Of a DNA stretch of 64,000 bases, positions 4,120 to 64,000 are shown piece after piece (position 1 is the stretch's first letter; each line of letters starts with the position of its first letter). The DNA is from a virus. The stretch covers positions 401,260-465,259 of the IMG/VR virus record IMGVR_UViG_3300034072_000926; one strand, 5' to 3'. The notes below the pieces were generated by a model. It saw nothing but the letters and a program-made list of their open reading frames with translations, did not search any database and was not told the DNA's origin. A program made the position numbers and the translations under genes.

Positions 4120-4712
4120 TCAACAATCTCCACAATGGCGCGCTTCTTACGAGGGCCAAGTTCGTGTCTACCAAGTTCGAGGGGCTTATCCCAACCGTTC
4201 TTGCGAGCCTGAGCCACAGACGGGAAGAAACCCAAGTCCACCATGAGGTGAGCCATTAGGGTCTTGTTCTGCGCCTGCATGTCCGCGATGCTGATACGGT
4301 CGGCTTTGCGCTGGGGATCGCCGTTGCTGTCAATATCCCACCAGCCTATCTTCTCACCACGTTTGATGCCCTCGCGAGCCTGTAGCTTGACTTGACCGAG
4401 CCAATCTTCTTTGGTTCGAGGCTCTCCGGATTGGAACCAACCCCAAAAACCCCAGTCATCATCGCGGATAACCTCGAAGGTCTTGTCGCCGAATGTGAAC
4501 TGACCGCGCAATGGCATAAAGTCGCCATCTTCCACGATAGTTTCATCCACACCTGGATCGGGAACAATCACACCGTGGGACTCGTGAATCTCATGGACCT
4601 TCGTCTCAATGAGATGACCCATCCACCACACTTCTTCCTCTTCAAGACGAAGGGTCTTGAATTCAACGAAGCCGGGCTGAATAGCCGTGCCGGAAGGGAA
4701 TAGAACTTTCAT
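4116..4712 (-). CDS. Hypothetical protein, basic C-terminus
   Basis: The protein has 198 residues, with a Trp-rich centre (WGFWGWF near residue 88) and a basic C-terminal segment with an FPSVAQARKNG motif. That segment loosely resembles RNA-binding S4-type segments, but the match is weak. First gene of a chain; TTGACA with a TATAGG 15 nt downstream lies just upstream. Confidence 0.7.
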   Translation of the reverse strand: MKVLFPSGTAIQPGFVEFKTLRLEEEEVWWMGHLIETKVHEIHESHGVIVPDPGVDETIVEDGDFMPLRGQFTFGDKTFEVIRDDDWGFWGWFQSGEPRTKEDWLGQVKLQAREGIKRGEKIGWWDIDSNGDPQRKADRISIADMQAQNKTLMAHLMVDLGFFPSVAQARKNGWDKPLELGRHELGPRKKRAIVEIVE

Positions 4713-4751: not shown

Positions 4752-5120
4752 TTAAATCCAGGGCTTGAGACCCTTAAGGATGTCTTCACGATCCTTTGGA
4801 TCAATAGGTCCGATGCCAAGTGCGGTAATCATCGGGCGAGGGAAGACAGTCTTCCCTGCATCCTTAATAAGAGCCACACCATATTTGTCCTTGTAGAGAC
4901 GACTCAGCTTGTGGAGGGTTTCTTCATCGGCAACGAGACAAACCTTGGCTACTATGCCAGAGTCCCGATAAGCCTTGACAACATCTGGGAAGCGATCCAA
5001 AGCGTCAAAGACAGCCTCAGTGTAGGCGTGCCCGATCTGAGCACCCATCTTGCCACGATTGCCCTTGGACTCCTGAACAGCTTCCTTGCTCACAATACAG
5101 TAGAGTTTAAGTTCAGACAT
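4752..5120 (-). CDS. Peptidyl-tRNA hydrolase 2 family
   Basis: This 122-residue protein is a complete PTH2-type domain, the archaeal/eukaryotic type that frees tRNA from peptidyl-tRNA, rather than bacterial Pth. The GKMGAQIGHA motif (residues 23-32) matches the family G-K-x-x-A-Q-x-x-H-A signature, and near the C-terminus the DAGKT and TALGIGP motifs are intact. The ATG overlaps the upstream gene by 8 nt. With phage tRNAs and synthetases present, tRNA recycling is a reasonable role. Confidence 0.88.
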   Translation of the reverse strand: MSELKLYCIVSKEAVQESKGNRGKMGAQIGHAYTEAVFDALDRFPDVVKAYRDSGIVAKVCLVADEETLHKLSRLYKDKYGVALIKDAGKTVFPRPMITALGIGPIDPKDREDILKGLKPWI

Positions 5121-5602: not shown

Positions 5603-5643
5603 ATTCACCTCATCTCATATTTACATGAAATGAAAGGTGGTTG

Positions 5644-5931
5644 TCAAGCCAAGGTAAGGCGCAAAAGAACAGCTGATTGAACACCGTGCTTCTTCGCGTG
5701 ATAGAACACCTGCCCGTCACGCTCGAACTGTTCGATGAGTGCGTGGTATTCACTCTCAAAGCGTTGCCAAGACCTATTGCCCGGATCGCCGAAACCAGTC
5801 ATGTAGTCATGTGCAAGAGTCCACGTCTCTCGCATATTGCGATCGGTTGCACGATGTCCCATTTTGATATGATACATCTTAAGAGCTTCGAATGATGCCT
5901 TCATTCGTTCCCGTAGATCGTCAATAGTCAT
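5644..5931 (-). CDS. YHAKKHG-family protein, copy 1
   Basis: The protein has 95 residues. Its C-terminus (VFYHAKKHGVQSAVLL) nearly matches that of the neighbouring upstream gene, and both start with a short acidic helix after M-T. Tandem duplication is evident. The ATG overlaps the 3' end of copy 2 by 11 nt. Function unknown. Confidence 0.75.
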   Translation of the reverse strand: MTIDDLRERMKASFEALKMYHIKMGHRATDRNMRETWTLAHDYMTGFGDPGNRSWQRFESEYHALIEQFERDGQVFYHAKKHGVQSAVLLRLTLA

Positions 5932-6196: not shown

Positions 6197-6480
6197 AGTT
6201 TGCCAGTCATCCTTAGACGCTTGGCACGACGATAGGCCCAGGAACGAAACTTCTTCAGCTTTGCATCACGAGCAATCCAGTTCTTAGTCAGTCGGACCTT
6301 CTCACGATCATACGGGAAGGTTGCCTGCTTCACTCTCTCATATTCTTCCTTAGAAGGGAAGGCGCAGCTATAACGACCGTGGGGACGACGTTCCTCGACA
6401 ATCTTCCAGAACCGCCGGAGATAGTCCTGTCGATTCCACCGAATTAAAGTCTGAGCAATCGAAAGCGGTGTAAGCGTCAC
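6193..6480 (-). CDS. Small basic protein
   Basis: The protein has 95 residues and is strongly basic (many Arg/Lys, RRAKRLRM near the end), with a GTG start 4 nt after the upstream stop. A nucleic-acid-binding role is possible from charge alone. No family recognised. Confidence 0.6.
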   Translation of the reverse strand: MTLTPLSIAQTLIRWNRQDYLRRFWKIVEERRPHGRYSCAFPSKEEYERVKQATFPYDREKVRLTKNWIARDAKLKKFRSWAYRRAKRLRMTGKL

Positions 6481-6484
6481 AGAT

Positions 6485-6694
6485 TTATCCGTCTAATTTA
6501 TGGGCCAATACATCAGCTTGTTCAGCCAGATTGAGCGCACCGAACTTTGTCCATAGCGCGGCCTTCTGAAGCGAGTCAACACCTTTTTGACCCATCTTCT
6601 CAAGTTCAGACATGGGAAGATTGCGAATGCTCGCAATGATCACGCCTTCACTATCAAGGGTCAAATCGATCGTTATGACGGGTTTATCGCTCAC
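6485..6694 (-). CDS. Hypothetical protein
   Basis: The protein has 69 residues. The GTG start overlaps the upstream TGA (GTGA), so translation is coupled. Unrecognised. Confidence 0.6.
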   Translation of the reverse strand: MSDKPVITIDLTLDSEGVIIASIRNLPMSELEKMGQKGVDSLQKAALWTKFGALNLAEQADVLAHKLDG

Positions 6695-7468: not shown

Positions 7469-7967
7469 TCACGTTCTCCTCAAAGAACTGGTTCGCGTCC
7501 TCGACATAGCGGAAAGCATAGAGGATGCCATTTGCGGCGCGCCAGGTGTATCGATGTTCGCTTATCACTTCACTCGGTATCATATCGAAATGCGGAATGA
7601 ACACACAATACCAAGTTGATGCCGAACCTGAACGAGTCGTGACCATACGTTCGGCCCACTTCGGAAGTGAAGCATTTCGCTTCAGATAATCCGACACGCA
7701 TTCACCATGGTGAACGTCGTCCGTTGACAGATTGTCGAGAACTTCCATACGCTCGATTTCAGACTGGACGACGCGCTTGGTAATCTCGAGAGCATTTGGA
7801 TTAGAATGCTCGAGGAACTTCAGCGCAACGGTGTCGGAATTGTAGGGATAGAGTTGAATTCGACGCTGACGATGCAAACGAATGAGCTGAATCGGAGCAT
7901 CAAAGGAAAGATGATATGCGCCTGACCATTTCGATTTGGCTTTTACGCGCTTGTTCAGAAGAATCAT
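7458..7967 (-). CDS. Hypothetical protein
   Basis: The protein has 169 residues. The ATG at 7967 overlaps the TGA of the HD gene (ATGA) and is preferred over an upstream TTG. The N-terminus is basic. Unrecognised; co-transcribed with the alarmone hydrolase-like gene. Confidence 0.7.
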   Translation of the reverse strand: MILLNKRVKAKSKWSGAYHLSFDAPIQLIRLHRQRRIQLYPYNSDTVALKFLEHSNPNALEITKRVVQSEIERMEVLDNLSTDDVHHGECVSDYLKRNASLPKWAERMVTTRSGSASTWYCVFIPHFDMIPSEVISEHRYTWRAANGILYAFRYVEDANQFFEENVNVG

Positions 7968-8599
7968 ACCAACTCCCAATCAGAATCCTTAACATCCAGG
8001 CGAGCCGAGAACTTCTCGATCATCACGCTAACATCCTGGAACAACTGCTCGTCACCATCCTTCAGACCGGGCAGCACATCAGCCTTTTCCTGCACCCACT
8101 TGCGGGCAAAACCGGGGTCATTGGCAACAATGCTGGGCATGTTGGACTTGATGTCGGCGAGCTTGACAGTCTGCCGCTCCGGCGTTGCCCGCCAGGCATG
8201 CTCCTTGTCAATGTCCTTCCGAACCTTGCGATTCCCGTCGGACAGCTGACTCACGTCAGTTACCTCGTAGACACCGGTCACAATCTGGCTCGCGACATCA
8301 TCGCCAAACCTCTTGCCGAACGCCTCACGGATATCACCGAGTCCCTTGTGGGTATCCTCAACCACGTCATGCAACAGCGCAACAGCAATCGTCACGGAAT
8401 CGTTGTGCTTGGACAACGACACCATCTTTGCAACTTGGATAGGATGAACCTCATAGTGGGCACCACTATACTTGCGACGCTGGCCTCCCAGCTCAGGGTC
8501 AGGCTTCAGCGCATGATTGCGATGTGCGTCGATCATGAACTCCATCGCAAAAATCACGATGGAATCCTGCATCACGTCATATGTGGTCTCGTTTGTCAT
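7964..8599 (-). CDS. Small alarmone hydrolase-like HD protein
   Basis: This 211-residue protein resembles the MESH1/SpoT hydrolase domain that removes pyrophosphate from (p)ppGpp. The motifs run in family order: an N-terminal H26, R42-K43, the H-P pair near 52-53, HDVVEDT at 77-83 (metal-binding H77-D78 with the hydrolase-specific ED), an RK pair and VKLAD. No synthetase or regulatory domain is present. It is first in a three-gene operon. Lowering ppGpp would relieve stringent control of host growth during infection, an inference. The alternative is another HD-superfamily nucleotide hydrolase. Confidence 0.82.
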   Translation of the reverse strand: MTNETTYDVMQDSIVIFAMEFMIDAHRNHALKPDPELGGQRRKYSGAHYEVHPIQVAKMVSLSKHNDSVTIAVALLHDVVEDTHKGLGDIREAFGKRFGDDVASQIVTGVYEVTDVSQLSDGNRKVRKDIDKEHAWRATPERQTVKLADIKSNMPSIVANDPGFARKWVQEKADVLPGLKDGDEQLFQDVSVMIEKFSARLDVKDSDWELV

Positions 8600-40311: not shown

Positions 40312-40388
40312 TGGTGGACACAGAGGGATTCGAACCCTCGACGCGAGATGTTAGAGATCTCCGCTCTAGACCGCTGAGCTATGCGTCC
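40312..40388 (-). tRNA. tRNA with CUA anticodon (amber suppressor)
   Basis: A textbook cloverleaf: acceptor GGACGCA/TGTGTCC, D-arm GCTC/GAGC, anticodon stem GAGAT/ATCTC, loop CTCTAAC, T-arm GAGGG/CCCTC with TTCGAAT, discriminator A and encoded CCA. The loop puts CTA at 34-36, so it reads UAG. The body resembles tRNA-Lys more than Gln, a hint only. The window also encodes LysRS. At least seven genes here end in TAG, so suppression would extend some proteins. Confidence 0.9.
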
Positions 40389-55849: not shown

Positions 55850-56536
55850 TCAGTCTTTCTTCACGCCCACAAAGCGGAGCAGGAAGAGGAAGAGATTGAG
55901 GAAGTCGAGGTAGAGGTTCAGCGCACCCATGACCACGATTCGACCCTTCGTATCACTGTCCATACGCGGGCTATAGGCTTCCTTGAGAGTCTGCGTATCC
56001 CAGGCAGTCAAGCCGGCGAAGATCAGGATACCCGCGATGCCGATGAACAAGTTCAGTCCAGTGCTGGGCATGAAAATGTTCAGGATCATGAGGCCCAGAA
56101 GACCGAACAAGCTGAAGATCAGGAAGCCACCGATTGGACCGAGGTCACGCTTGGTCGTGTAACCGTAGAGGCTACAGCCCGCAAAACCGATAGCAGCACC
56201 GAGGAATGCGAACAGAATCGAACCACCGGTATATTTGCTCAGGATCAGACCGAGACCCAGACCTTCGAGGATCACGAACGACCAGTAAAGGCCATGCAGC
56301 GTGGACAGTTTCATGCGCTCGACACCGAGGCTCATCGCGAACACCAAGGCTAGCGGCGACAGTGCGACGATCCAGAAAAGCAGACCGCCCTGCTTGAGAG
56401 TCTCGACCATACCGCTGATCTGTGCGAACCATGCAGCGCCGGCGCTGACGAGAAGACCCATGAGCATCAGATTGTAGATGCTCGTCATATAGTTGCGAAG
56501 GCCTTGGTCAACGGCCTCGCGTTCTGCAATATACAT
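55850..56536 (-). CDS. Bax inhibitor-1 (YccA/YbhL) family membrane protein
   Basis: The 228-residue protein starts at the ATG after GGAGGTTTCACGA. Seven hydrophobic helices, an N-terminal MYIAER...LRNYM segment and the family end-motif LNLYLDFLNLFLFLLR are present. Bacterial members affect membrane-protease FtsH or ion leakage. Phage copies may damp host stress or lysis timing. Confidence 0.85.
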   Translation of the reverse strand: MYIAEREAVDQGLRNYMTSIYNLMLMGLLVSAGAAWFAQISGMVETLKQGGLLFWIVALSPLALVFAMSLGVERMKLSTLHGLYWSFVILEGLGLGLILSKYTGGSILFAFLGAAIGFAGCSLYGYTTKRDLGPIGGFLIFSLFGLLGLMILNIFMPSTGLNLFIGIAGILIFAGLTAWDTQTLKEAYSPRMDSDTKGRIVVMGALNLYLDFLNLFLFLLRFVGVKKD

Positions 56537-56598
56537 TCGTGAAACCTCCATTTAGACTCACTCATACCACTATACAGGGTGGTAGGAAGGATGTCAAC

Positions 56599-57742: not shown

Positions 57743-57879
57743 GTGACGGGCAAGTAATCGCTAATGGAATTTAGCCGGCTGCTCTAACCACCTGAGCTAC
57801 ACCGGGCCCTAAGACCCGATGAAGGGAGTCGAACCCTCGACACGCTGGTTGGGATAACCCATCAACTACGGCCCGTCAC
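57743..57879 (-). tRNA. Permuted tRNA locus 1
   Basis: Minus-strand order: P1 (GTGACGGGC), CG, TAGTTG, P2 (ATGG), GTTATC, then a 3' tRNA part (CCAGC, variable GTGTC, T-arm GAGGG/CCCTT, 3' acceptor CATCGGG), a 7-nt linker, then a 5' part (acceptor CCCGGTG, D-arm GCTC/GAGC, GCCGG), P2' (CCAT), TAGCGATT, ACTT and P1' (GCCCGTCAC). Acceptor halves pair 7 of 7 and P1 9 of 9. Anticodon not assignable. Confidence 0.75.
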
Positions 57880-57885
57880 GTGTTC

Positions 57886-57914
57886 TTGATATGGTAAAAG
57901 GGCACTGTTGTCAA
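57886..57914 (-). promoter_or_regulatory. Promoter of permuted locus 1
   Basis: TTGACA, 17 nt, TATCAA. The predicted start (about 57879) is the first base of P1. Confidence 0.7.
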
Positions 57915-57937
57915 GCGCCCTTTTACCATAATGATTA

Positions 57938-58120
57938 TTAAATGTGGACGCCTGAGAGCAGTCCCGATTTCTGCAATAGAACCAGTAGGGCGATTACACC
58001 CACGACCAGTTTTGCTGGCATGTGGACAGGGGCCGGGAATGCCGAGTCAATGACCCAGAATGCACACCACACGATGGCCACAAAGATAACCAGCATTAGT
58101 AGAAGTGAAATGATATCCAT
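57938..58120 (-). CDS. Small two-helix membrane protein (holin-like)
   Basis: The 60-residue protein has hydrophobic helices at about 3-26 and 36-52 with a short loop. The ATG follows AAAAAGGAGAAAAGAC. The size and topology fit class II holins, but many phage mini-membrane proteins look alike. Confidence 0.6.
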   Translation of the reverse strand: MDIISLLLMLVIFVAIVWCAFWVIDSAFPAPVHMPAKLVVGVIALLVLLQKSGLLSGVHI

Positions 58121-58189
58121 GTCTTTTCTCCTTTTTCTGGATACTAATACTTACTAGGATAGGAGCGTGGTTAAACACATGGATCAAAA

Positions 58190-58224
58190 TGGTGCGCGCA
58201 GTGGGGGTCGAACCCACGCTTGAG
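58190..58224 (-). tRNA. tRNA 3' fragment with CCA
   Basis: A perfect T-arm (GTGGG/CCCAC) and 3' acceptor strand TGCGCGC followed by ACCA, but no matching D-arm or 5' acceptor strand is adjacent. It follows a complete tRNA directly. Probably a remnant; a part joined in trans cannot be excluded. Confidence 0.6.
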
Positions 58225-58298
58225 TGTCCCCAGTCGGATTCGAACCGACAACATGCGGGGTTTAAGGCCGCCGACTCTACCAGTTGGCCTATAGGGAC
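58225..58298 (-). tRNA. tRNA with UAA anticodon
   Basis: Acceptor GTCCCTA/TGGGGAC, T-arm GTCGG/CCGAC, short D-stem GGC/GTC. The anticodon stem GCGGC/CCCGC has a C-C mismatch next to the loop CTTAAAC (TAA). UAA reads Leu UUA, yet the variable loop is short, unlike Leu tRNAs. Confidence 0.65.
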
Positions 58299-58307
58299 AT
58301 AAGTATT

Positions 58308-58392
58308 TGGTAGGCACGGTGGGACTCGAACCCACACGGATTAACCACACAATTTTAAGTCGTGCGCGTATGACCAATTTCGCCACGTGCCC
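58308..58392 (-). tRNA. tRNA-Leu (UAA anticodon)
   Basis: Class II: acceptor GGGCACG/CGTGCCT, anticodon stem CACGA/TTGTG, loop CTTAAAA, long variable arm, T-arm GTGGG/CCCAC, encoded CCA. Confidence 0.88.
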
Positions 58393-58402
58393 ATGGAGAA
58401 GT

Positions 58403-58978
58403 ATGTCTAAGAACGAAGTGATAAAACAATTCGGCTACACATGTTCAGCTTGTAGCATATCTGAATGGATGGGTAAACCTATTTGTTTAGAGCTTGATCA
58501 CATCGATGGCAATAATCGAAACAATGAATTGTCGAATCTGCGTCTACTCTGTCCCAATTGTCACTCTCAGACAGAGACATTCAGAGGTCGCAATATCAAT
58601 AAAGGTGAGACTAAAGTTTCAGATGAGGATCTAGTCGAGGCTCTGACTTCGACGAAAAACATTCGTCAAGCCCTCATCAAGGTCGGTCTAACACCAAAGG
58701 GTATGAACTATCAGCGAGCTTCAAAACTTCTTAATCATCAATACCAAACGGTAGATAAGAATAATTCGCAATATGGATCAGTTTGGATCCATAATGGAAC
58801 TTCAAATAAGAAGATCAAAGCTGACTTACTTTCAGAATATCTCGAGCAAGGGTGGGTCAAAGGCAGGATCATGCTAACGAAAGCCCCATCACAACGCGGC
58901 AAGTTTTGGGTAACGAACGGTCTTCAAAACCGAATGGTTACTGAGATTCCTGAAGGATGGTGGAAAGGTATGTGTTAA
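58403..58978 (+). CDS. HNH homing endonuclease
   Basis: The 191-residue protein starts at the ATG after GGAGAAGT, 11 bp from the tRNA-Leu 5' end. The HNH motif is CSACS...LELDHIDGNNRNNELSNLRLLCPNCHSQT (two CxxC zinc pairs and the D-H-I-D-G-N core). The C-terminal half has the repeated DNA-contact segments of this family. It is a mobile gene set in the tRNA cluster on the opposite strand. Confidence 0.88.
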   Translation: MSKNEVIKQFGYTCSACSISEWMGKPICLELDHIDGNNRNNELSNLRLLCPNCHSQTETFRGRNINKGETKVSDEDLVEALTSTKNIRQALIKVGLTPKGMNYQRASKLLNHQYQTVDKNNSQYGSVWIHNGTSNKKIKADLLSEYLEQGWVKGRIMLTKAPSQRGKFWVTNGLQNRMVTEIPEGWWKGMC

Positions 58979-58993
58979 GTCTCTACCTTTGGG

Positions 58994-59425
58994 CTATGCG
59001 CGCTTAACGTCCTCAACGGCTCGACGGAGAATGTCTTCCATCAGCGTATTGAACGTAATATCCCTCTTATGTGCTTCCTTGAATAGAAATAGAAGCAATT
59101 CGTCATCCAGATCGAGAGGTATCTGAACACGGAGATCGAAGGTCTTATTAGCCACGATGGCTTCGGCCTTCTCGACAAAGTCCTCAAGCACGTCAAGCTC
59201 AACAAACTCGATGCTCGTATCTAGCTGATCAGCTACGGCATCCTTATGATCTGGATCAATCCAACGATAAGCGAAGCTACCATGCTCATAATCGGGACGG
59301 GTCACAACAGTTAGGACACGAGTGCCATGACCCTGAACTACTCCGGCGGTCATTCTCGCAGTATCCTGATTCAGACCCTTGCTGGCCTGATCCACATACC
59401 AGTTATAGATTTCTGCTTCGTTCAT
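58994..59425 (-). CDS. Hypothetical protein
   Basis: The 143-residue protein has a C-terminal helical segment resembling a short ribbon-helix-helix (RVQIPLDLDDELLLFLFKEAHK). Ends in TAG. Unrecognised. Confidence 0.65.
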   Translation of the reverse strand: MNEAEIYNWYVDQASKGLNQDTARMTAGVVQGHGTRVLTVVTRPDYEHGSFAYRWIDPDHKDAVADQLDTSIEFVELDVLEDFVEKAEAIVANKTFDLRVQIPLDLDDELLLFLFKEAHKRDITFNTLMEDILRRAVEDVKRA

Positions 59426-59446
59426 CTTGTTACCTCTTTATCTCAC

Positions 59447-60355
59447 CTACTTATTAGCAGGGTTAAGGTCAGAGGACAATCTTTCTTTCGCAAACTCGAT
59501 ATAATGTTCATCAACATCAAAGCCGAGCCAATCAAGACCTTCGGCTTGAGCCGCCACAGCACTGGTTCCTGTTCCCATAAAGGGGTCGAGGAGGGTTCCC
59601 TCGACGTTGCTGAACCTAATACAGCGACGAACCAATTCAACGGGGAAGGTTGCCGGATGAGAGCCCCTATGAGTCCCTCGACTAGCAATCGTTTCATACG
59701 GTATAAACCACACATTGCCGGGGCAATGTCGGTCGTCTACGGGCTTGGCTGATGCTAATTTGAGGGCTAGAGCGTCCTCGAGTGCAACCTTTTGCTCTTC
59801 GGTCGCATTCGCGTCATAGTCTCGCTTATCCTTCCATCCGGCTTTCTTGATCATACGACCACGCCAGCGGCCACTCTTGTCCAAGTTTGCTTTATCTGCA
59901 TATGGAACACCGACTGCCGATTTATTACAAGGGACATTGCCTGACTTTGTGAAGTGGAAGAGATGTTCCCATGTGGGATTTGCGAAACGCTCGCTATTGA
60001 TGGGCTTGTAATGACCCAATTGTTGATCATCGATTGCGATGCTTTTGGTCCAAATGAAATTGTTCTGTAGGACCATATGCTTGCGAGCTTCGTTGGCTAC
60101 ATCCATACCAACCCAGGGATCCACATTACTGTAGCCCATATTAAGCCAGAAATGTCCATCGGGTTTGAGCACTCGTTTCACTTCTGCGAAAACGCAAGAA
60201 AGCCACGTGAGATAATCCTCACGTGGCGTTGTATCTTGATATGTGGAATACTTGATTCCAAGATTATATGGAGGGCTAGTGACGCAGATATCTAGGGATT
60301 CTGCATCCAACTCTTTCAAACCCTCGAGGCAATCCTTCAGTTCTATTCTTCCCAT
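59447..60355 (-). CDS. DNA methyltransferase (beta-class, N4/N6)
   Basis: The 302-residue protein has the catalytic TSPPY motif at 27-31 and the SAM-binding LDPFMGTGTSAVAA motif near 262-275, the beta-class order. It methylates an adenine N6 or cytosine N4 at an unknown site; no restriction gene adjoins, so it probably protects phage DNA from host enzymes. Confidence 0.9.
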   Translation of the reverse strand: MGRIELKDCLEGLKELDAESLDICVTSPPYNLGIKYSTYQDTTPREDYLTWLSCVFAEVKRVLKPDGHFWLNMGYSNVDPWVGMDVANEARKHMVLQNNFIWTKSIAIDDQQLGHYKPINSERFANPTWEHLFHFTKSGNVPCNKSAVGVPYADKANLDKSGRWRGRMIKKAGWKDKRDYDANATEEQKVALEDALALKLASAKPVDDRHCPGNVWFIPYETIASRGTHRGSHPATFPVELVRRCIRFSNVEGTLLDPFMGTGTSAVAAQAEGLDWLGFDVDEHYIEFAKERLSSDLNPANK

Positions 60356-60386
60356 ACATCTAATTAGCGATGTAGGAAAGTGAACT

Positions 60387-60557
60387 TTAGCCCAGGGTAG
60401 CGAGCTCCTCAGGGGTCAGCCGGCTCTTGATCTCTTCCACGGCTGCATTGATGCGAACCAGTTCGGGATGATCAGGCTGTTCCAGGCAGTCCAACCTCAA
60501 GCCATTCAGGCGAAGCTGGGCGTTGCGTAGGTGCTGAAGATTCGTTGCGTTGTTCAT
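60387..60557 (-). CDS. 56-residue small protein
   Basis: The ATG follows CAGGAGAATAC. Start MNNATNLQHLRNAQL; helical and charged, likely a coiled coil. Upstream TTGCAA-16-TCTACT could be the promoter. Function unknown. Confidence 0.65.
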   Translation of the reverse strand: MNNATNLQHLRNAQLRLNGLRLDCLEQPDHPELVRINAAVEEIKSRLTPEELATLG

Positions 60558-60694
60558 GTATTCTCCTGTTGCTGGTCACGCATCAGTAGAACACAATTGC
60601 ATCCTTTGCAACCTAAAAATGTAACCGATTTAGTGACATGATTGGTTAGGAGCCTATAAGTATGCAGAAACGCAACATACCCGAGGTGGGTTAC

Positions 60695-60862
60695 ATGTTC
60701 ATCCTACAATCACTTCTAGTTCTATATCTGACCGCAGCCATAGCAATGAGCGCAGCGCTCTGCAGGCATTATCCACAATTTATGGGATGGGCTAACGTGA
60801 GTCGCGGAATGGCTTGGCCAGTCACGATCTACGAAATCGTCTCAGGATTGATCGACGAATAA
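60695..60862 (+). CDS. Small membrane protein
   Basis: The 55-residue protein starts at the ATG after GAGGTGGGTTAC; an ATG at 60662 abuts the -10 TATAAG of a plus-strand promoter and is unlikely. One N-terminal transmembrane helix is followed by a short domain. Function unknown. Confidence 0.55.
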   Translation: MFILQSLLVLYLTAAIAMSAALCRHYPQFMGWANVSRGMAWPVTIYEIVSGLIDE

Positions 60863-60863
60863 G

Positions 60864-60953
60864 CGGGAAGCAGTGGAATTGAACCACTCACCTGTAGGGG
60901 TTATAGGTGCTCATAGCTTGAAGCCAGACTAGGACCATCCTAGCTTACTTCCC
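60864..60953 (-). tRNA. tRNA, class II-like, isotype unresolved
   Basis: Acceptor GGGAAGT/GCTTCCC, D-arm GCTA/TAGT with GGATGG, a long arm CACCT/AGGTG before a perfect T-arm AGTGG/CCACT. The anticodon stem cannot be drawn cleanly; CTTCAAG is a candidate loop (TCA). It overlaps the next gene's end by 9 nt. Confidence 0.6.
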
Positions 60954-61154
60954 AGGTTGCAAGCGATCATAGAACGTCCTCAAGAGATCGTTCGACATCT
61001 TTGCATAATAAGAACGCGGATAGTTGGTTGCAATGTGGTTGAGCTGATTACTCAGCATCTTTGCATCATCGGCTGAGATTTGACGATCATTGATCCAATC
61101 GCTTCCGTTGTGGTTGCGAAGCCAATAATTCTTATTCAATTCCCAAAGACGCAT
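60945..61154 (-). CDS. Small hypothetical protein
   Basis: The 69-residue protein starts at the ATG after GTGGAGGATATT. Trp/Asn/Arg-rich, helical. Unrecognised. Confidence 0.65.
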   Translation of the reverse strand: MRLWELNKNYWLRNHNGSDWINDRQISADDAKMLSNQLNHIATNYPRSYYAKMSNDLLRTFYDRLQPGK

Positions 61155-61177
61155 AATATCCTCCACGTTCAGGATAT

Positions 61178-61453
61178 TTAGCGTTCTGGGCGATGCTCAA
61201 CTGTCCAACCAGGAAGCTCTCTTTGTAGCCTCTTGTGAAGGTTTGCGCCTTGTTTGTTGAATCCCTTGAGATCAAAGGGACGTTTGCGGTCCTCGACGTC
61301 TAGGTAGAATTCACTCTGTTCATACCAAAGCGTCCACTTATAGATATCATCGAAGAGTCGCTGACTGATGGGGAGTTCCTCGAGGTCCATCATGCTACCG
61401 TCTTTACTCCAAACACCACTGCTGGAATAATCGGCCATCAACTTAACGAACAT
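61178..61453 (-). CDS. Hypothetical protein
   Basis: The 91-residue protein starts at the ATG after AAAAGGAGTTCCA. The AAAA of this ribosome site is the end of P1' of the permuted locus upstream, so pairing of P1 could mask or expose the site. Unrecognised. Confidence 0.65.
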   Translation of the reverse strand: MFVKLMADYSSSGVWSKDGSMMDLEELPISQRLFDDIYKWTLWYEQSEFYLDVEDRKRPFDLKGFNKQGANLHKRLQRELPGWTVEHRPER

Positions 61454-61462
61454 TGGAACTCC

Positions 61463-61706
61463 TTTTGAGGGCAAGTTTTGTGCTGGCCTTTCTTCCGCTG
61501 CGTCTGCCAATTCCGCCACCTCGCCCATCAACTGCCTTGGATACAACAGCAATTATGATCTTGCGTATCCATTCTTGTCTTACTGTCCTAGGCGGATTTT
61601 AGCCGGAGACCTAGTCCAAGACAGATGGTGGGGAGGGAAGGACTCGAACCTTCATGACTTTAGTCCACGGTCTTACATCGATAACCCAGAACTTCGGCCC
61701 TCAAAA
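61463..61706 (-). tRNA. Permuted tRNA locus 2 (Leu-like) with long linker
   Basis: Order: P1 (TTTTGAGGGC), CG, AAGTT, P2 (CTGG), GTTATC, a 3' part with variable arm, T-arm GAAGG/CCTTC, acceptor CCTCCCC, A, CCA; ~100 nt of linker; then the 5' part (acceptor GGGCGAGG with one bulge against CCTCCCC, Leu-type D-arm), P2' (CCAG), CACAAA, ACTT, P1' (GCCCTCAAAA). P1 pairs 10 of 10. Confidence 0.65.
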
Positions 61707-61716
61707 CGATCTAAAA

Positions 61717-61857
61717 GTTCGACGGGCAAGTGTTGCGAAGGACCTTTTTCAGCGTCCTATCCACTAGACGATCCCCGCACAATGGAGCGGGGACTGGGAT
61801 TCGAACCCAGGTTTCCGGCTTGACATGCGATAACCCTTTGCTATCGGCCCGTCGAAC
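61717..61857 (-). tRNA. Permuted tRNA locus 3
   Basis: Order: P1 (GTTCGACGGGC), CG, ATAGC, P2 (AAAGG), GTTATC, a 3' part (T-arm CTGGG/CCCAG, acceptor TCCCCGC, T, CCA), linker TTGT, then the 5' part (acceptor GCGGGGA, D-arm GTCT/GGAC, GCTGA), P2' (CCTT), CGCAAC, ACTT, P1' (GCCCGTCGAAC). Acceptor 7 of 7, P1 11 of 11. D-arm resembles tRNA-Glu or Arg. Confidence 0.8.
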
Positions 61858-61864
61858 TAATGAC

Positions 61865-61893
61865 TTTATACACTGGCATCTAACCAGTGTCAA
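61865..61893 (-). promoter_or_regulatory. Promoter of permuted loci 3 and 2
   Basis: TTGACA, 17 nt, TATAAA. Predicted start about 61858, one base before P1. Confidence 0.75.
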
Positions 61894-61894
61894 G

Positions 61895-61963
61895 TGCTCT
61901 AGGAGGGATTCGAACCCACAAGAGTCGCTTTAGGAGAGCAACGTCCGTCCAGTCGGCTAGAGC
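61895..61963 (-). tRNA. tRNA-Arg (CCU anticodon)
   Basis: Acceptor GCTCTAG/CTAGAGC, anticodon stem TTGCT/AGCGA with loop CTCCTAA (CCT), T-loop TTCGAAT. The D-arm is atypical. Confidence 0.75.
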
Positions 61964-61974
61964 ATAAGTAGAAT

Positions 61975-62283
61975 ATGTTTAGATATCTTCAACCCGGTGA
62001 AAAGGGCGACTATTGGGGAACCTCAAGTCTCCTTGAATGGCTTACAAAGCTTCTAAAAGGTCATGTTGTTCCGGAAGATGCAACTGTTCAGCACATTGAA
62101 TTCTTTCTTCAAGAATATTATGCCAATGCACAGAAAACAGGCCCATATGCTATAATCACTTTCTATCCTTCATCTATCCGATATTTGGGTCCTGAAGGAG
62201 TAGACGGGACTACCTTTGATGCTCATCGAATCAATATCAATTACGATACTAATCGAGTTATTCAAAGTATTAGCTTAGGGTAA
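61975..62283 (+). CDS. Hypothetical protein
   Basis: The 102-residue plus-strand gene sits between two minus-strand tRNAs. The ribosome site is weak. Codon use is AT-richer than its neighbours, hinting at a recent arrival. Unrecognised. Confidence 0.6.
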   Translation: MFRYLQPGEKGDYWGTSSLLEWLTKLLKGHVVPEDATVQHIEFFLQEYYANAQKTGPYAIITFYPSSIRYLGPEGVDGTTFDAHRININYDTNRVIQSISLG

Positions 62284-62284
62284 G

Positions 62285-62356
62285 TGGTCCTACCAAGATT
62301 CGAACTTGGGCTTACGCTTTCGTAGAGCGTCGTGATATCCATTTCACTATAGGACC
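62285..62356 (-). tRNA. tRNA-Arg (ACG anticodon)
   Basis: Acceptor GGTCCTA/TAGGACC, anticodon stem ACGCT/AGCGT with loop CTACGAA (ACG), T-arm CCAAG/CTTGG. It immediately follows permuted locus 4. Confidence 0.88.
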
Positions 62357-62361
62357 ATGGG

Positions 62362-62466
62362 TGACGAGCAAGTGGAGGATTCCGTGCGCTCCCAATTGAG
62401 CTAACCGTTGTTCGTGAACAACGATTGGAGTCGAACCAATGATAACGGAAGCCAATCGGCTCGTCA
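62362..62466 (-). tRNA. Permuted tRNA locus 4
   Basis: Order: P1 (TGACGAGC), CG, ATTGG, P2 (CTTCCG), TTATC, T-arm ATTGG/CCAAT, acceptor CGTTGTT, 4-nt linker, acceptor AACAACG, D-arm GCTC/GAGC, P2' (CGGAA), TCCTCC, ACTT, P1' (GCTCGTCA). P1 has a compensated change (GGGC/GCCC to GAGC/GCTC) against the other loci. P2 here also serves as the anticodon stem. No nearby promoter; probably processed. Confidence 0.75.
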
Positions 62467-63732: not shown

Positions 63733-63794
63733 AGAGGGCAAGTTGTTTGACCTGGGACATTCTAGCAAAGATAACCCAAGCCTATCGGCCCTCT
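63733..63794 (-). ncRNA. Stand-alone copy of the permuted-tRNA element
   Basis: This 62-nt RNA has P1 (AGAGGGC/GCCCTCT), CG, ATAGG, P2 (CTTGGG/CCCAGG), TTATC, a 13-nt loop, TCAAACA and ACTT, the same parts as around the four permuted tRNAs but with no tRNA inside. Confidence 0.7.
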
Positions 63795-63830: not shown

Positions 63831-63833
63831 CAG

Positions 63834-63880
63834 TGGAGACGACGGGATTCGAACCCGCACGATTCGCTTACCTAGACATT
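63834..63880 (-). tRNA. tRNA 3' part at window edge
   Basis: 3' acceptor CGTCTCC with discriminator A and T-arm GCGGG/CCCGT with TTCGAAT. No matching 5' part (GGAGACG) is seen; it may lie beyond position 64000, either interrupted or permuted. Confidence 0.5.
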
Positions 63881-64000
63881 ACTCCAGGCATCCGCTATGG
63901 TGTAGGAATTCATCGCGAGCCGACAAAAAGCACCTAGCGTCACTTCAAAGTGAATCGGATTTTACTCCGAACCGCGTCCTTTCCTTGCGATTGCCTGTCC

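What the first reader, a model, noticed from the sequence alone, without database searches (positions are those of the whole stretch)
57743..62466. Four permuted tRNA loci framed by one conserved RNA element
Seen directly: at four minus-strand loci the T-arm and 3' acceptor strand come before the 5' acceptor strand and D-arm, so the tRNA is circularly permuted, with the break at the anticodon. All share outer helix P1, CG, 5-6 nt, helix P2, GTTATC on one side and P2', 6-8 nt, ACTT, P1' on the other. Acceptor strands pair 7 of 7 in three loci and with one bulge in the fourth. Permuted tRNA genes are known from some algae and archaea, where splicing at a bulge-helix-bulge and RNase P/tRNase Z cuts restore the tRNA. 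I know of no phage case with a shared flanking element. It could be a self-splicing or ligating RNA, a two-piece tRNA held by P1/P2 (as in two-piece tmRNA), or a tRNA mimic without an anticodon that acts as a decoy for anticodon nucleases.
Basis: partly seen in the sequence, partly recalled or inferred. Interest (0 to 1): 0.96.

Follow-up and report, generated by a model that had tools for sequence, protein, structure and literature searches.

The report
Jumbo-phage Y RNAs mimicking permuted tRNAs
The four back-to-front tRNA-like loci are not broken tRNA genes: they are Y RNAs, small RNAs that dock on the ring-shaped Ro60 protein, and this giant phage carries eleven of them, its own Ro60 gene and over fifty predicted tRNAs, a much larger Ro60 and Y RNA set than one would expect in a virus.

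Summary
At four minus-strand loci (A 57743-57879, B 61716-61858, C 61463-61706, D 62362-62466) a T-arm and 3' acceptor strand precede the 5' acceptor strand and D-arm, inside one conserved stem: P1-CG-N5-P2-GTTATC ... P2'-N6-8-ACTT-P1'. In 18 phage homologues 93% of pair cells are paired (66% shuffled), and 20 of 23 pairs change on both sides. The reading changes. The stem is the Ro60-binding stem of Y RNAs, and the "permuted tRNA" is the tRNA-like domain of bacterial YrlA-type Y RNAs, a known circularly permuted tRNA fold (PMC11472068). The same 465-kb record encodes a full-length Ro60 (1e-115 to Deinococcus Rsr) and 11 Y RNAs: six with the full domain, one partial, four without, including 63733-63794 and one just upstream of the Ro60 gene. 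Self-splicing is not needed. The likely role is a Ro60 RNP scaffold, perhaps for tRNA surveillance or as a nuclease decoy. Phage Y RNAs are already known. Apparently new are the copy number, the domain-free forms within a tRNA array, and an NCCA exactly after the acceptor strand in 11 of 27 phage domains.

The parts
57743..57879 (-). Y RNA A: P1 9 bp, CG, TAGTTGATGG, GTTATC, T-arm, acceptor CATCGGG / CCCGGTG (7/7), D-arm, P2', ACTT, P1'
   Evidence: R1 85.5 bits; Rfam YrlA 33.1 bits and RF01656 37.9 bits; orthologue in sister phage G001 172220-172357, where RF01656 passes its cut-off
61463..61706 (-). Y RNA C: P1 10 bp, Leu-like tRNA domain with ACCA after the acceptor; acceptor loop 104 nt here and 15 nt in the sister phage
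   Evidence: G001 orthologue 174947-175100
61716..61858 (-). Y RNA B: P1 12 bp, tRNA domain with TCCA after acceptor TCCCCGC / GCGGGGA
   Evidence: R1 126.3 bits; fold z = -4.5; orthologues in G001 and in phage Phosso
62362..62466 (-). Y RNA D: most compact, closest to the textbook YrlA layout; acceptor CGTTGTT-CACG-AACAACG closed by a four-base loop
   Evidence: Rfam YrlA 30.4 bits; R1 69.0 bits
63733..63794 (-). Y RNA E: minimal Y RNA, same outer element with no tRNA domain
   Evidence: 40.3 bits; element conserved in 12 aligned short phage Y RNAs

Best explanation
The loci are phage-encoded Y RNAs of the bacterial YrlA kind. P1, the CG/ACTT asymmetric internal loop, P2 and GTTATC form the stem that docks on the phage's own Ro60 ring. 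In A to D the end of the stem carries a tRNA-like module (T-arm, closed acceptor helix, D-arm) with the Ro60 stem where the anticodon arm would be, so the tRNA reads as circularly permuted; no splicing is needed. Shown here: the structure by covariation, the homology to Y RNA families, the full-length Ro60 in the same genome, and 11 copies. Inferred: that the RNAs are made with the tRNA array, bind phage Ro60, and use the tRNA-like modules to bring in or compete for host proteins that handle tRNA. Host PNPase is the likeliest partner, because the phage has none of its own and the published RYPER machine uses it; tRNA-modifying or tRNA-cutting enzymes are others. The result would steer structured-RNA or tRNA turnover, or shield phage tRNAs, during infection. 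The confidence given is for the Y RNA / Ro60-scaffold identity; the specific downstream role is about 0.5.
For: Rfam YrlA matches A and D below its cut-off (33.1 and 30.4 bits, E 2.6e-4 and 1.6e-3; 39.3 bits for a G001 locus). The nematode Y-RNA-like family RF01656 matches A (37.9 bits) and its G001 orthologue above cut-off (39.0 against 38). Pfam TROVE and vWA_Ro60 match the 590-aa protein at genome 129219-130991, and PDB Rsr 2nvo matches at 1e-115. At the positions equivalent to Xenopus Ro K170, R174 and H187 the phage keeps K, R and H; that these contact RNA is from memory. Y RNA number 11 lies just upstream of the Ro60 gene (132226-132384) and is conserved there in G001, G004 and Phosso. 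Covariation. R1 finds full-length matches in Mycobacterium phage Nappy, Gordonia phage Sixama and Streptomyces phage Karimac, all of which carry Ro60. The published description of YrlA (PMC8394870) and of the UUAUC motif of animal Y RNAs (PMC4726728) fits.
Against: No locus in this phage reaches the Rfam YrlA gathering score (69 bits). Many domains have a longer acceptor loop, often with NCCA, unlike the short loop of the Rfam model. There are no expression or binding data. The partner protein and the biological role are inferred.
Confidence: 0.93

Rival explanations
1. Decoys: the anticodon-less tRNA-like domains bind and occupy host anticodon nucleases or other tRNA-targeting defence proteins, with Ro60 only stabilising the RNAs. 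This is a rival for the role, not for the Y RNA identity.
For: Published as a possibility for Salmonella YrlA, which is not cut by the SOS-linked anticodon nuclease (PMC7790460). The phage has over 50 predicted tRNAs and a T4-type RNA ligase, so tRNA damage seems to matter to it. The domains are diverse.
Against: Four of the 11 Y RNAs have no tRNA domain and one has only part of one. T-arm and acceptor mimicry does not offer an anticodon loop. No defence target is known.
Confidence: 0.25
2. Two-piece RNAs: RNase P and 3' processing open the acceptor loop, leaving a CCA end on a two-piece tRNA-like molecule that could be charged or bound by tRNA enzymes.
For: NCCA stands directly after the acceptor strand in 11 of 27 phage domains; at seven other offsets CCA occurs once among 142 tests. 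It spans jumbo phages related to Sinorhizobium phage Phosso, Gordonia phage Sixama and Mycobacterium phage Nappy. Locus C tolerates a 104-nt loop.
Against: 16 of 27 lack NCCA, including D with a four-base loop. The CCA could be left over from tRNA ancestry; at C it is lost in the sister phage.
Confidence: 0.13
3. True permuted tRNA genes that are cut and ligated into working tRNAs, as in some algae and archaea.
For: Order of halves.
Against: Only A keeps even a 4-of-5 anticodon stem remnant. The same outer element exists with no tRNA at all. Ordinary tRNAs for most amino acids are predicted beside them. Published Y RNA structures explain the permutation.
Confidence: 0.02

Closest known systems
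YrlA bacterial Y RNA (Rfam RF02553; PDB 6CU1)
   Same: Basal Ro60-binding stem with 5'/3' ends paired; tRNA-like domain in permuted order T-arm, acceptor, D-arm; no anticodon arm; D resembles it most
   Different: Below the Rfam score; acceptor loop often longer with NCCA; eleven copies of several sub-families in one genome
Deinococcus radiodurans Rsr / Y RNA / PNPase machine (RYPER)
   Same: Close Ro60 homologue (1e-115); a Y RNA next to the ro60 gene
   Different: The phage has no PNPase; a host PNPase would be needed
Metazoan Y RNAs and nematode sbRNAs (RF01656)
   Same: Stem, CG/ACTT internal loop and UUAUC motif; RF01656 scores at about its cut-off
   Different: No tRNA-like domain in the animal RNAs; different loops
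Y RNAs and Ro-like genes of mycobacteriophages and other phages
   Same: Phage-encoded Ro60 and Y RNA, beside tRNA arrays; R1 finds them in Nappy, Sixama and Karimac
   Different: One to three full-length matches in each actinophage checked, against eleven here
Two-piece tmRNA and permuted tRNA genes
   Same: Permuted order around the acceptor stem
   Different: No tag reading frame, no anticodon arm to rebuild, shared Ro60 stem instead

Membership tests
Bacterial Y RNA (YrlA type) | Basal stem of paired 5' and 3' ends with a conserved asymmetric internal loop (CG / ACTT) | tested here: met
   100% of P1 cells paired, 6 of 7 pairs with changes on both sides; CCG, GTTATC and ACTTG invariant in 18 homologues
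Bacterial Y RNA (YrlA type) | Binding of the stem by Ro60 / Rsr | not testable with these tools
   Needs a binding assay
Bacterial Y RNA (YrlA type) | tRNA-like domain with T-arm, acceptor helix and D-arm in permuted order | tested here: met
   Loci A-D and homologues. Absent in E and three other loci, which are therefore Y RNAs but not YrlA-like
Bacterial Y RNA (YrlA type) | Scores above the Rfam RF02553 gathering cut-off | tested here: not met
   Best 33.1 bits in this phage and 39.3 in relatives against 69. A database threshold, not a biological feature: read as distant or variant members
Bacterial Y RNA (YrlA type) | Ro60 (Rsr) encoded in the same genome | tested here: met
   TROVE and Ro60 vWA in one 590-aa protein
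RYPER RNA degradation machine | Y RNA tethers Ro60 to PNPase | not testable with these tools
   No phage PNPase found; host unknown
Permuted tRNA gene giving a functional tRNA | Anticodon stem-loop restorable across the two halves | tested here: not met
   No consistent anticodon stem on inspection of the sequences; Y stem in its place; domain-free copies exist
Self-splicing or self-cleaving RNA | Match to a ribozyme or intron family | tested here: not met
   No ribozyme or intron family of Rfam at E up to 10; this does not exclude an undescribed ribozyme

The most novel reading that the evidence does not exclude
Phages with large tRNA arrays keep a whole set of Y RNAs, each with its own tRNA-like head, many with a true NCCA position. 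The acceptor loop is cut by tRNA-processing enzymes to give CCA-ended two-piece RNAs on phage Ro60, which then capture specific tRNA-handling or tRNA-attacking proteins: a multi-headed tRNA-mimic platform used in tRNA quality control or counter-defence.
Probability: 0.15. Interest if true: 0.85.

Novelty: new variant of a known kind. Interest (0 to 1): 0.6.

Why it matters
Bacterial Y RNA function is still poorly understood, and the experimental work cited in the papers read here centres on Deinococcus and Salmonella. A phage that spends genome on Ro60 and eleven Y RNAs implies strong selection on RNA or tRNA surveillance during infection and offers a tractable test of what the tRNA-like head does. 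It also corrects annotation: a tRNA finder calls some of these RNAs tRNA-Ser, the Ro60 of a related phage is labelled Clp protease-like, and the Y RNAs checked in phage Phosso are unannotated.

Tried and rejected
Ribozyme, group I/II intron and riboswitch families: no Rfam match at the loci. Recent origin from the phage's own tRNA genes: best similarity about 0.7, no clear parent. RtcB and PNPase in the phage: none. A complete tmRNA across the two record ends: ARAGORN found none in the joined ends, and the ends share no overlap. A DNA-level search of one Y RNA in the phage collection: no match, so structure models or motif patterns are needed to reach relatives. Key primary papers on YrlA (Chen 2014; Sim and Wolin 2018, 2020) are not in the library, so I could not check the largest Y RNA number reported per genome.
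Full report
WHAT IS THERE. The window is the last 64 kb (401260-465259) of a 465,259-base virus record. On the minus strand at 57743-57879 (A), 61716-61858 (B), 61463-61706 (C) and 62362-62466 (D) the sequence reads P1, CG, about five bases, P2, GTTATC, then a tRNA T-arm and 3' acceptor strand, a linker, the 5' acceptor strand and D-arm, then P2', 6-8 bases, ACTT and P1'. Acceptor strands pair 7/7 at A, B and D and 6/7 at C, or with one bulge. The fifth site, 63733-63794 (E), is the same outer element closing on a short loop.

WHAT IT IS. P1 / CG...GTTATC / ...ACTT-P1' is the lower stem and conserved loop motif of Y RNAs. I recognised it from memory of human Y1. [quoted passage not shown] Two separate Rfam Y-RNA-type families match: YrlA at A and D, at 33.1 and 30.4 bits against a cut-off of 69 (E 2.6e-4 and 1.6e-3), and nematode RF01656 at A, at 37.9 against 38. 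RF01656 passes its cut-off (39.0) at the orthologue of A in the sister phage. Bacterial YrlA is described as a basal stem that holds the Ro60 homologue Rsr plus a tRNA-like domain made of D, T and acceptor arms (PMC8394870). Its crystal structure superposes on tRNA as a circular permutation (PMC11472068). That explains the permutation without splicing.

THE PARTNER PROTEIN. The same record encodes a 590-aa protein at 129219-130991 (minus) with TROVE and Ro60 vWA domains. It matches Deinococcus Rsr (PDB 2nvo) at 1e-115 and animal Ro60 at about 1e-107 to 1e-110 over nearly its whole length. At the positions equivalent to residues K170, R174 and H187 of the 1yvp chain the phage has K, R and H. 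That these residues contact RNA is from memory.

HOW MANY. The motif plus partner search and a covariance model built from 18 phage sequences (R1) agree on eleven Y RNAs; one further full-length match, at 5620-5738, is weak (18.5 bits, E 0.04), overlaps a predicted tRNA, and I do not count it. Five lie in the window (A-E). Five lie at 4543-4660, 4761-4828, 6453-6583, 7572-7638 and 8202-8338 in the tRNA array at the other end of the record. One lies at 132226-132384, just upstream of the Ro60 gene. A, B, C, D, 6453-6583 and 8202-8338 carry the tRNA-like domain, though the D-arm of 6453-6583 is degenerate. 4543-4660 has a T-arm and a weaker acceptor only. E, 4761-4828, 7572-7638 and 132226-132384 have no tRNA domain. 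Because R1 was trained on some of these sequences, its scores there are not independent. Matches outside the training set are Gordonia phage Sixama 56.8 bits, Mycobacterium phage Nappy 50.6 and Streptomyces phage Karimac 41.8.

COVARIATION. On 18 phage Y RNAs 93.1% of pair cells are standard pairs against 66.2% shuffled and 41-52% when partners are slid. 113 cells have changes on both sides against 37, and no shuffle of 500 reached any observed value. All seven acceptor pairs and six of seven P1 pairs have double changes. Across mismatched loci only 19 of 380 acceptor pairings reach 7/7, against 17 of 19 within loci. Single-strand folds reproduce the stem and acceptor helix with z from -2.5 to -4.5.

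RELATIVES. Full-length R1 matches, adding motif-defined copies, give about 11 in sister phage G001, 5 in G002, 8 in G003, 6 in Sinorhizobium phage Phosso, 1 in Agrobacterium phage Atu_ph07, and one to three in each actinophage checked. The Phosso Y RNAs I looked up carry no annotation. The Atu_ph07 Ro60 is labelled Clp protease-like. In Nappy one weak Y RNA match fills the gap between two annotated tRNAs, and in Sixama Y RNAs lie between tRNAs downstream of Ro60. 344 phage records hold a match to this Ro60. A Deinococcales metagenome contig also has about five Y-RNA-like matches inside a tRNA array upstream of Ro60; I cannot say whether that contig is a prophage.

A DIFFERENCE FROM THE TEXTBOOK Y RNA. 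In the Rfam YrlA model the acceptor helix ends in a short loop, as in locus D. In many phage copies the loop is longer and begins with N-C-C-A, exactly positions 73-76 of a tRNA. This holds for 11 of 27 phage domains, while CCA occurs once among 142 tests at seven other offsets. The naive binomial P is 1e-13 and overstates the case, because orthologues are not independent. In the B and F families NCCA is kept in three phages each while acceptor sequences change; in C it is lost in the sister phage. It may be a relic of tRNA origin or a processing signal; I cannot separate these. No clear parent tRNA exists in the phage.

HOW IT LIKELY WORKS. Shown: a conserved structured RNA family, its homology to Y RNAs, and the presence of Ro60. 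Inferred: the RNAs bind phage Ro60 through the basal stem, and the tRNA-like head recruits or competes for tRNA-handling proteins. In bacteria Y RNA tethers Rsr to PNPase (PMC8394870; PMC4726728). The phage has no PNPase or RtcB but has a T4-type RNA ligase.

NOVELTY. Phage Y RNAs and phage Ro60 are already in the literature (PMC12282133, PMC7765460, PMC7824862). What I did not find reported in the papers I could read is the scale (eleven in one genome), the mix of domain-bearing and domain-free forms in a tRNA array, and the NCCA position. The primary Y RNA survey (Chen et al. 2014) was not readable here, so priority on copy number is not established.

Noticed in passing
G000 6510-6588 (L030) and L079 18808-18884: ARAGORN calls parts of two Y RNAs tRNA-Ser(tga); phage tRNA counts made with such tools may include Y RNA domains.
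   Followed up: partly
window 63831-64000: tmRNA-like 3' end (Rfam tmRNA 18.8 bits, cut at the record end). Joining the record ends gave no complete tmRNA with ARAGORN, and the ends share no overlap.
   Followed up: partly
window 61463-61706: The acceptor loop of Y RNA C is 104 nt and contains two hairpin-like stretches; in the sister phage it is 15 nt, so something was inserted at or lost from the tRNA end position.
   Followed up: partly
window 58190-58225: An orphan tRNA 3' half (GTGGGTTCGACCCCCACTGCGCGCACC) directly follows a tRNA-Leu, with no partner seen.
   Followed up: no
window 60865-60953: Degenerate tRNA-like sequence matching tRNA-Sec below cut-off (36.2 bits).
   Followed up: no
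window 40312-40388: A tRNA with a CTA anticodon (ARAGORN tRNA-Pyl; a possible amber suppressor) stands apart from the main array.
   Followed up: no
window 55850-56551: Bax inhibitor-1 family membrane protein (Pfam Bax1-I, 1.2e-52) encoded by the phage.
   Followed up: no
L121 4554-10000: Deinococcales metagenome contig with a tRNA array holding several Y-RNA-like matches upstream of a Ro60 gene; possibly a prophage.
   Followed up: partly
G000 227707-228291: T4-type RNA ligase 1 homologue (6.5e-32), pointing to tRNA repair during infection.
   Followed up: no
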